From an uncultured Alphaproteobacteria bacterium (lineage in GTDB: Bacteria > Pseudomonadota > Alphaproteobacteria > Caulobacterales > Caulobacteraceae): 64,000 nucleotides of DNA. The translations under genes and the position numbers were made by a program. Of this stretch, positions 45,065 through 46,525 are shown piece after piece (positions within the stretch are counted from its first letter, which is position 1; each line of letters opens with the position of its first letter). The stretch is taken from assembly GCA_903909375.1 (NCBI GenBank), contig CAIVVM010000036.1:241953-305952 (forward strand). The letters run 5' to 3'. The notes beneath the pieces were generated by a model. That model saw only the letters and a program-made list of their open reading frames with translations. It was not told the origin of the DNA and searched no databases.

Positions 45065-45085
45065 GCCCGACCGCGCGCATCAGGT

Positions 45086-45190
45086 TCAGAAGAATACGTA
45101 GAAACGCATGGCCGAAGCCGGCAGGCGCTCCAGTTCACGCGCCAGCGGCGCGAACATCGCATCCAGAAGTTTTTCGATCAGGGCGACCAT
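45086..45190 (-). CDS. Possible 34-residue small protein
   Basis: The ATG at 45188-45190 is preceded by GGAGG with a 10-nt gap, a strong ribosome-binding site. It opens a frame for MVALIEKLLDAMFAPLAREL followed by ERLPASAMRFYVFF, which looks like an amphipathic helix with a hydrophobic end. A longer frame exists from a GTG at 45274. The ribosome-binding site, and a palindrome-like CATTG...CAATG with GTGCAGTGCAA just upstream, argue for a real short gene in the regulatory islet. No homologue is known to me. Confidence 0.4.
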   Translation of the reverse strand: MVALIEKLLDAMFAPLARELERLPASAMRFYVFF

Positions 45191-45204
45191 TTGAGTCACG
45201 CCTC

Positions 45205-45323
45205 CATTGTGCAGTGCAATGAGCCCCAGATGGGCGTGAGCTGCTGTCAGATCAAGGGTTTTCGCTAAACCCACAGGGATTCCCGCTGCATTGCGGGAAC
45301 GAGTTGCCGCAATGCAACATCGC
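45205..45323. promoter_or_regulatory. Cluster of TGCANTGCA-type palindromes downstream of the XRE gene
   Basis: Three related 11-mers occur here: GTGCAGTGCAA (45209-45219), CTGCATTGCGG (45286-45296, within the hairpin TTCCCGC-TGCATT-GCGGGAA at 45280-45299) and CCGCAATGCAA (45307-45317). The 14-mer GCAATGCAACATCG (45309-45322) recurs exactly at 46467-46480. The region lies between the XRE stop and the small ORF at 45086, so it can serve as that ORF's control region. The 45280 hairpin could also terminate the XRE transcript. Confidence 0.55.
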
Positions 45324-45324
45324 G

Positions 45325-45564
45325 CTAATCGGGCTCGTCATCCAGTGGCCCGTCTTCTGACCCGGCCTCATAGATCAGCAGATCGCCGGGCTGACAGTCC
45401 AGCTCCCGGCAGAGCGCGGCCAGGGTCGAAAACCGGACGGCGCGGGCCTTGCCGGTCTTCAGGATCGACAGATTGGCGATGGTCACCCCCACACGGTCGG
45501 CAAGTTCGGTGAGCGACATCCGGCGGTCCAGCAGGACGCGGTCGAGATTGACGCGGATCGGCAT
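45325..45564 (-). CDS. Small XRE/Cro-type regulator paired with DUF2975 (YozG-like)
   Basis: A 79-residue protein that is essentially one helix-turn-helix domain: MPIRVNLDRVLLDRRMSLTELADRVGVTIANLSILKTGKARAVRFSTLAALCRELDCQPGDLLIYE. This is the YozG-like regulator usually encoded beside a DUF2975 membrane protein, as here (14-nt gap). The repeated TGCANTGCA palindromes at both ends of the islet are its most likely binding sites; that is inference. Confidence 0.9.
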   Translation of the reverse strand: MPIRVNLDRVLLDRRMSLTELADRVGVTIANLSILKTGKARAVRFSTLAALCRELDCQPGDLLIYEAGSEDGPLDDEPD

Positions 45565-45578
45565 GCTTGTCGTCTCCG

Positions 45579-46118
45579 CTAGATGGTCAGCTCGGCTTCG
45601 CGGCGCAGGCGTGCGCCTTCGCGGAACACCTCCGCCAGGACGAAGACGACAAGAACGGAAAACCAGGCGGTAAGGCTGAGCGACGGCTCCACGCGGTCAA
45701 GGCCCGGAAACACCCACACACTCAACGCCCAGAAGGCGTAGCGGCCCAGTTCCAGCGCGGCCAGCATCAGACCGATCAGCCGCAGGCGCGCCACATTGTC
45801 TGGATGAAATGGGTCGCCCGCTGTCAGCGTCATGAAAATGCGCCGGAGAGACCCCACGATAACGAGGATGGCGGCAAGATAGAGGTCCGCGGACGCAAGT
45901 GAGCGCAAAATGTTTGCGCCGTTGGCGAGAAGCTTGGTGATGTCGGCGTCTGGAGCGCCATCGGCGCCAGTCCGAAGGCCGATCACGAGATCAGGATTGA
46001 ACCTGACCAGGAGCGCAACCAGCGTCACAACGCTGAGGATCGCGAGGCTGGTCCAGAGGGCGGCGAAAACGACGTCCAGGATGACTTTCAGAAAGCTCGA
46101 AACAGAGCCAGGTCCCAT
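45579..46118 (-). CDS. DUF2975 membrane protein
   Basis: A 179-residue inner-membrane protein with four hydrophobic segments: [71 protein letters not shown] and [36 protein letters not shown] is the DUF2975 signature. The start [14 protein letters not shown] (46118) is chosen because the upstream part of the open frame is arginine/proline-rich out-of-frame sequence. It is coupled with the XRE gene. The function of the pair is unknown. Confidence 0.9.
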
Positions 46119-46228
46119 GGCGCGCAATGTCGACGGCTCCCATTCGTGGGTATGGATCCGCCGCGGCGCCGAGTGTGGCCGGCAACCGGGGCGGATCGGA
46201 CGAACCCCATAAGTATCAGGGTCGTGTC

Positions 46229-46336
46229 TTAGAGGAAGGTCGCATTGGCCGCGATGGCCAGGATGGGCGCGCCCGCAAGGATGACGACGAAGGTCACGGC
46301 GACGCGGTCGAGGATATACATGGCTTGAGAGAACAT
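46229..46336 (-). CDS. Possible 35-residue single-pass membrane protein
   Basis: This ORF is too short for the supplied track. On the minus strand GGAG lies 9 nt before an ATG that opens [20 protein letters not shown] followed by [15 protein letters not shown] and TAA. Residues 12-33 are a convincing transmembrane stretch. It lies 110 nt upstream of the DUF2975 gene on the same strand and 22 nt downstream of a perfect palindrome. Position, ribosome-binding site and hydrophobicity together suggest a genuine first gene of the islet operon. No homologue is known to me. Confidence 0.5.
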
Positions 46337-46357
46337 TTGGGTAGCTCCGCTTTTCAT

Positions 46358-46480
46358 GCTGCAATGCAGCAGGTTAATGCTCGGAGCCCCGCGCCCCGAT
46401 GCGCTTATCGATATGCGCGCATTGCTTTTCGATCAAATGAACATCGAGTAACGATGTTAAACTTTTGCAATGCAACATCG
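46358..46480. promoter_or_regulatory. Palindromes upstream of the islet operon and of rdgB
   Basis: GCTGCA-A-TGCAGC (46358-46370) is a perfect palindrome 22 nt upstream of the 35-residue ORF. TTGCA-A-TGCAA (46465-46475) is another and forms part of the exact 14-mer GCAATGCAACATCG (46467-46480) shared with 45309-45322. Between them ACATCG-AGTAA-CGATGT (46441-46457) is a further inverted repeat. The 407 bp between the DUF2975 start and rdgB hold only these sites and the small ORF. Confidence 0.6.
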
Positions 46481-46525
46481 GCGGCGGAGGCTATGGTCCC
46501 GGCGCAGGCAATGCGGAGTGAATCA

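What the first reader, a model, noticed from the sequence alone, without database searches (positions are those of the whole stretch)
45065..46525. Operator-rich XRE/DUF2975 islet between rph and rdgB
rph and rdgB-hemW are usually neighbours in this group (memory), but here 1.4 kb separates them. The islet holds a YozG-like XRE regulator, a DUF2975 membrane protein, two ORFs of 34-35 residues with good ribosome-binding sites, and at least five copies of an 11-mer of the type NTGCANTGCAN. The exact 14-mer CGATGTTGCATTGC (minus strand) lies about 119-131 nt upstream of each small ORF, and a TGCA palindrome lies just upstream of each. This gives two parallel units under one probable operator code: one leads to a tiny membrane protein plus DUF2975-XRE, the other to a tiny amphipathic peptide. 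It could be a compact, self-regulated membrane-stress or peptide toxin-like module.
Basis: partly seen in the sequence, partly recalled or inferred. Interest (0 to 1): 0.72.

Follow-up and report, generated by a model that had tools for sequence, protein, structure and literature searches.

The report
PhaR-controlled micropeptide beside DUF2975-XRE operon
The islet is two neighbouring gene units: an old operon for a tiny membrane protein, a DUF2975 membrane protein and their own repressor, and a 34-residue amphipathic peptide gene whose DNA switch sites match those of PhaR, the regulator of bacterial bioplastic (PHB) granules, so the peptide is probably a PHB-granule or storage-linked micropeptide rather than a toxin.

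Summary
The repeated sites and both small ORFs are real; the single-operator, toxin-like reading is not supported. Window genome: Phenylobacterium-type, Caulobacteraceae.

(1) The motif is the PhaR box TGCRNYGCA; published PhaR sites are CTGCN3GCAG and YGCRNYGCR. All three strict copies in the 64 kb window lie in the islet. An unbiased search for tandem boxes in 40 genus genomes returned mainly the phasin promoter and the promoter of the 34-aa ORF (S2). Boxes precede S2 in 48/48 loci (114 seen, 3.1 expected). They stay with S2 in three genomes where it lies far from DUF2975-XRE.

It lies upstream of 16/44 other alphaproteobacterial DUF2975-XRE pairs (0.05 expected).

(3) The other small ORF (S1, 35 aa, one probable TM helix) heads the S1-DUF2975-XRE operon in Phenylobacterium, Caulobacter and Brevundimonas-like genomes. 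Two PhaR boxes 106-107 bp apart flank its promoter.

Best model: PhaR represses S2, with phasin, until PHB titrates PhaR away; XRE autoregulates S1-DUF2975-XRE, with PhaR added in this genus. S2 coating PHB granules is inference; nothing was tested experimentally.

The parts
45086..45190 (-). S2: 34-aa amphipathic micropeptide gene MVALIEKLLDAMFAPLARELERLPASAMRFYVFF
   Evidence: Conserved start, SD and stop in relatives; pN/pS 0.32-0.51 in frame, at least 0.93 in other forward frames; 47/56 sampled genus genomes, 0 in other genera of the family; predicted helices 2-22 and 25-31; hydrophobic moment mean z 2.35.
45210..45218 (.). PhaR box of S2 (TGCAGTGCA), between -10 and SD
   Evidence: Strict TGCRNYGCA; in 48/48 loci a box lies upstream of S2.
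45227..45232 (-). putative -10 of S2 (CATCTG; genus consensus TATATG)
   Evidence: Alignment of 49 upstream regions; consensus inference.
45250..45255 (-). putative -35 of S2 (TTGATC), 17 bp from -10
   Evidence: Alignment, conserved cTTG-N17-CCTAT.
45287..45295 (.). weaker PhaR box upstream of S2 (TGCATTGCG)
   Evidence: Fits YGCRNYGCR, an unspecific pattern by itself.
45308..45316 (.). weaker PhaR box upstream of S2 (CGCAATGCA), overlapping the 14-mer copy 45309-45322
   Evidence: Fits YGCRNYGCR.
45325..45564 (-). XRE regulator, HTH_26, 79 aa
   Evidence: PF13443 E 2.9e-21.
45579..46118 (-). DUF2975 membrane protein, 179 aa, four long helices
   Evidence: PF11188 E 2.8e-11; model pLDDT 90.4.
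46229..46336 (-). S1: 35-aa single-TM micropeptide gene [35 protein letters not shown]
   Evidence: S1-type ORF in 73/81 loci; frame controls.
46360..46368 (.). PhaR box in the S1 leader (genus consensus GCTGCRNYGCAGC)
   Evidence: near-invariant in aligned leaders.
46408..46413 (-). putative -10 of S1 (TATCGA)
   Evidence: Conserved TATnGA; consensus inference.
46431..46436 (-). putative -35 of S1 (TTGATC), 17 bp from -10
   Evidence: Alignment.
46440..46458 (.). probable XRE operator AACATCG-AGTAA-CGATGTT
   Evidence: Exact palindrome; same position in the operon of relatives; core in 16/44 non-genus DUF2975-XRE loci against 0.05 expected.
46466..46474 (.). upstream PhaR box of S1 (TTGCATTGCAA on minus), overlapping the 14-mer copy 46467-46480
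   Evidence: 106-107 bp to the leader box in 24/26 loci.

Best explanation
Two adjacent transcription units. Unit A (S1-DUF2975-XRE, minus strand) is an old operon of Caulobacterales: a single-TM micropeptide, a four-helix DUF2975 membrane protein and an HTH_26 XRE that autoregulates through the 19-bp palindrome just upstream of the S1 promoter. Unit B is S2, a genus-specific 34-35-aa amphipathic micropeptide with its own promoter and one or two PhaR boxes between -10 and SD. Without PHB, PhaR occupies these boxes and represses S2 together with phasin. When PHB accumulates, PhaR is titrated onto granules and S2 is made, most likely to bind the granule surface (or membrane, or another granule protein). 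In this genus two further PhaR boxes flank the S1 promoter, which ties unit A to storage state, perhaps by a repression loop. From sequence comparison: genes, boxes, their conservation, the phasin/phaR link, the palindrome. Inferred: PhaR and XRE binding, direction of regulation, looping, S2 function.
For: Published PhaR motifs CTGCN3GCAG and YGCRNYGCR (PMC12542648) and TG[N]TGC[N]3GCAA (PMC3206438) match the islet motif. The genome has one PhaR, PhaC and a phasin (PF09361 E 6.6e-24) whose promoter carries two boxes; one box lies between phaR and the divergent phaA. Tandem-box search in 40 genus genomes: of the 30 loci it brought in, 14 are phasin and 9 are S2 promoters. Boxes before S2: 114 seen, 3.1 expected, 48/48 loci; before S1: 56 seen, 1.4 expected, 35/50 loci; Caulobacter-type operon 2 seen, 0.4 expected. 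S2 relocated in G022, G023 and G029 keeps its boxes. Palindrome: at most one mismatch, one per genus genome where found, at this locus; also in Caulobacter, at a paralogous DUF2975-XRE pair (L174), and in 16/44 other loci, with spacer 5 almost exclusively. S1/S2 coding. S2 amphipathic.
Against: No binding or expression data. PhaR and PhaC are near-universal in the genus, also in sampled genomes without S2, so presence/absence gives no functional link. S2 has no match to phasins or any family. TGCRNYGCA is short (301 copies per genome), and the DUF2975 coding control also shows 15 against 2.7 expected, so single copies mean little. 28 of 44 non-genus loci lack the strict palindrome, some having variant palindromes. 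S1 pN/pS of 0.54-0.72 is only moderate.
Confidence: 0.78

Rival explanations
1. One reading: the 79-aa XRE binds the TGCA boxes and controls both small ORFs as one self-regulated stress or toxin-like module.
For: Boxes occur in both units of the islet.
Against: Boxes also mark phasin and phaR promoters, are essentially absent from the Caulobacter operon, and stay with S2 away from XRE; a different palindrome tracks DUF2975-XRE pairs; no toxin family hit.
Confidence: 0.06
2. S2 belongs to the PhaR regulon but is not a granule peptide: it is a small regulator or a membrane-binding peptide that acts in the switch to storage metabolism.
For: Amphipathic helices also bind lipid membranes (general knowledge); S. 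meliloti PhaR strongly regulates small proteins of unknown function (PMC12542648); invariant P15, R22, P24 and R29 suggest a specific partner.
Against: Tandem boxes over the promoter in the manner of phasin favour a granule role but do not prove it.
Confidence: 0.4
3. The box in the S1 leader (GCTGC-N3-GCAGC) acts as an RNA hairpin near the ribosome-binding site rather than as a DNA operator.
For: Perfect short inverted repeat within the putative transcript, 28-36 nt before the start in most loci; a second repeat GGGAC...GTCCC nearby shows paired changes by eye.
Against: The sequence, not only the pairing, is nearly invariant; it equals the published PhaR site CTGCN3GCAG; spacing to the upstream box is fixed at 106-107 bp. 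Not tested by covariation counts.
Confidence: 0.15
4. The upstream boxes mainly serve the divergent rdgB promoter.
For: Box 46466-46474 is about 55 bp upstream of rdgB.
Against: The box is missing where S1 and its promoter are lost although rdgB remains (e.g. L061, L073, L077); the second box lies in the S1 leader.
Confidence: 0.05

Closest known systems
PhaR (AniA, PhbF) regulon of PHB metabolism
   Same: Box sequence, tandem boxes overlapping the promoter, phasin and phaR/phaA as co-targets, one PhaR per genome.
   Different: The targets S1-DUF2975-XRE and S2 were not found described; S2 is a genus-specific 34-35-aa peptide.
Phasins (PF09361, TIGR01841)
   Same: Amphipathic helix under PhaR boxes.
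   Different: 34-35 aa against 114 and 148 aa for the S. meliloti phasins; no sequence match to phasin models.
DUF2975 plus HTH_26 (YozG-like) XRE pairs
   Same: Pfam matches, gene order, palindrome upstream as in many Alphaproteobacteria.
   Different: In Caulobacteraceae a single-TM micropeptide S1 leads the operon; in this genus PhaR boxes are added.

Membership tests
PhaR regulon | PhaR box in promoter | tested here: met
PhaR regulon | PhaR and PHB synthase encoded in the genome | tested here: met
PhaR regulon | Same motif at phasin and phaR promoters | tested here: met
PhaR regulon | PhaR binding and PHB-dependent derepression | not testable with these tools
   Needs EMSA and reporter assays.
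Phasin | Sequence match to a phasin model | tested here: not met
   No hit for S2 in Pfam, NCBIfam or PHROGs.
Phasin | Amphipathic helix | tested here: met
Phasin | Localises to PHB granules | not testable with these tools
   Experiment needed.
DUF2975/HTH_26 pair | PF11188 and PF13443 above cut-off, adjacent | tested here: met
DUF2975/HTH_26 pair | Shared palindromic operator upstream | tested here: met
   The window form AACATCG-N5-CGATGTT is a variant of the family core; XRE binding itself untested.
Toxin-antitoxin module | Match to a toxin or antitoxin family | tested here: not met
   No such hit for the small ORFs or DUF2975 in Pfam, PHROGs or NCBIfam; PADLOC not searched.
Toxin-antitoxin module | Toxicity rescued by the partner | not testable with these tools
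   Experiment needed.

The most novel reading that the evidence does not exclude
S2 is the founding member of a 'micro-phasin' family: a 34-35-aa single amphipathic helix that coats or tunes PHB granules, switched by PhaR like phasin. In addition the S1-DUF2975-XRE membrane operon is a storage-state sensor with two inputs: XRE at its palindrome, and PhaR forming a 106-bp loop around the promoter.
Probability: 0.35. Interest if true: 0.75.

Novelty: new variant of a known kind. Interest (0 to 1): 0.6.

Why it matters
It gives a testable regulon and a testable function (PHB granule or storage) for a micropeptide family with no database match. It defines a probable operator for DUF2975-linked XRE regulators; a search of the held library for DUF2975 returned 2 papers, neither about this protein family by title or abstract. 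It also adds a second micropeptide (S1) that heads this operon across Caulobacteraceae, including the model genus Caulobacter. If S2 is granule-bound, it would be a far smaller granule protein than the S. meliloti phasins (114 and 148 aa).

Tried and rejected
Considered and dropped: long-range RNA pairing of the boxes (in several loci the two boxes do not match at the centre base, e.g. TTGCATTGCAA with CTGCACTGCAG in L038). An RpoH-type promoter for S2 (CTTG-N17-CCTAT looks similar from memory) was not tested. Fold search of the DUF2975 model in PDB gave nothing significant (best E 0.43). PHROGs and NCBIfam gave no hit for S1, S2 or DUF2975. S2 in other genera: none in 115 class genomes besides the window's own or in the other genera of the family. 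The first leader alignment (A1) and first S1 protein alignment (A2) had locus L001 in the wrong orientation and were redone (A5, A3). One search failed and was rerun.

Full report
What is there. The islet at 45065-46525 is confirmed: on the minus strand, in the order of transcription, S1 (46229-46336), DUF2975 (45579-46118), XRE (45325-45564) and S2 (45086-45190). The 14-mer occurs twice, exactly. DUF2975 is found in 50 of 60 relatives, and loci labelled Phenylobacterium, Caulobacter and Brevundimonas were fetched. In nearly all of them DUF2975-XRE lies between or beside rph and rdgB-hemW, so its presence there is the rule, not an insertion.

The small ORFs are genes. S1-type ORFs lie before DUF2975 in 73 of 81 loci, including Caulobacter (MSAARLFxIADKVVMTAITAALIVAVPVSAVAFxxQTL) and Brevundimonas-like genomes. 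Different small hydrophobic ORFs lie at the same place in two further families of the order. S2 occurs in 47 of 56 sampled genus genomes and in no other genus sampled. In-frame pN/pS is 0.72 and 0.54 for S1 and 0.32 and 0.51 for S2; the other forward frames give 0.93 to 3.6. One antisense frame of S2 is also low (0.43 and 0.64 in the two length classes), so the case leans on the conserved start, Shine-Dalgarno and stop as well. S1 has one strongly hydrophobic segment. S2 is predicted as a helix 2-22 plus a short helix 25-31 and is amphipathic.

The motif is a PhaR box. Published PhaR sites are CTGCN3GCAG (Rhodobacter sphaeroides) and YGCRNYGCR within the Sinorhizobium meliloti motif (PMC12542648), and TG[N]TGC[N]3GCAA for PhbF of Herbaspirillum (PMC3206438). 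The window genome has one PhaR gene, PhaC and a phasin. The phasin promoter has two boxes, and a box lies between phaR and the divergent phaA. A search of 40 genus genomes for two boxes 4-20 bp apart, made without regard to genes, brought in 30 loci of which 14 are phasin and 9 are S2 promoters. In shuffle tests S2 upstream regions hold 114 boxes against 3.1 expected and S1 upstream regions 56 against 1.4; Caulobacter-type S1 regions show 2 against 0.4. The DUF2975 coding control also exceeds its shuffles (15 against 2.7), so conserved coding sequence can carry the motif; the promoter signals are much larger. Relatedness of the loci inflates all these counts. In G022, G023 and G029 S2 lies far from DUF2975-XRE and keeps its boxes.

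The XRE has its own probable operator. A palindrome AATATCG-N5-CGATATT lies upstream of S1; the window has AACATCG-N5-CGATGTT, changed on both arms. With at most one mismatch the palindrome occurs once in those genus genomes that have it, and there at this locus. It is also present in Caulobacter, another family of the order, and a paralogous DUF2975-XRE pair. The core TATYG-N5-CRATA is found upstream in 16 of 44 other DUF2975-XRE loci against 0.05 expected, nearly only with spacer 5. In L061, L073, L077 and L089, where S1 is missing, the palindrome is missing as well.

How it probably works. PhaR represses when PHB is low and is titrated to granules when PHB accumulates (established for S. 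meliloti and others, PMC12542648). The S2 boxes sit between the putative -10 and the SD, a place fit for repression. The S1 promoter has a box on each side, 106-107 bp apart in 24 of 26 loci, close to ten helical turns, which would suit a loop; this is inference. DUF2975 is predicted as four long helices without a significant PDB match, so its activity remains unknown; a sensor or XRE-controlling role is a guess from gene pairing.

Novelty. PhaR regulons are known; the peptide families S1 and S2 and the DUF2975-XRE operator were not found described in the libraries searched, which for papers hold open-licence work only. I therefore file it as a new variant of a known kind.

Noticed in passing
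S1 leader, window about 46370-46405, and relatives (alignment A5): An inverted repeat GGGAC...GTCCC precedes the leader PhaR box and shows paired changes across species by eye; could be an RNA hairpin.
   Followed up: partly
L174 (G024:C1:1662200-1667700): A second, paralogous DUF2975-XRE pair elsewhere in one genus genome, with two palindromes of the same type upstream.
   Followed up: partly
L184, L203: DUF2975-XRE loci with several overlapping or tandem copies of the TATYG-N5-CRATA palindrome.
   Followed up: no
L160, L163, L168: In another family of the order a different conserved 44-aa hydrophobic ORF (MSRKNSTTNFGGIGGIVNGLAVLV...) lies directly before DUF2975.
   Followed up: partly
L061, L073, L077, L089: Loci without S1 and without the palindrome, with DUF2975-XRE close to rdgB.
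   Followed up: partly
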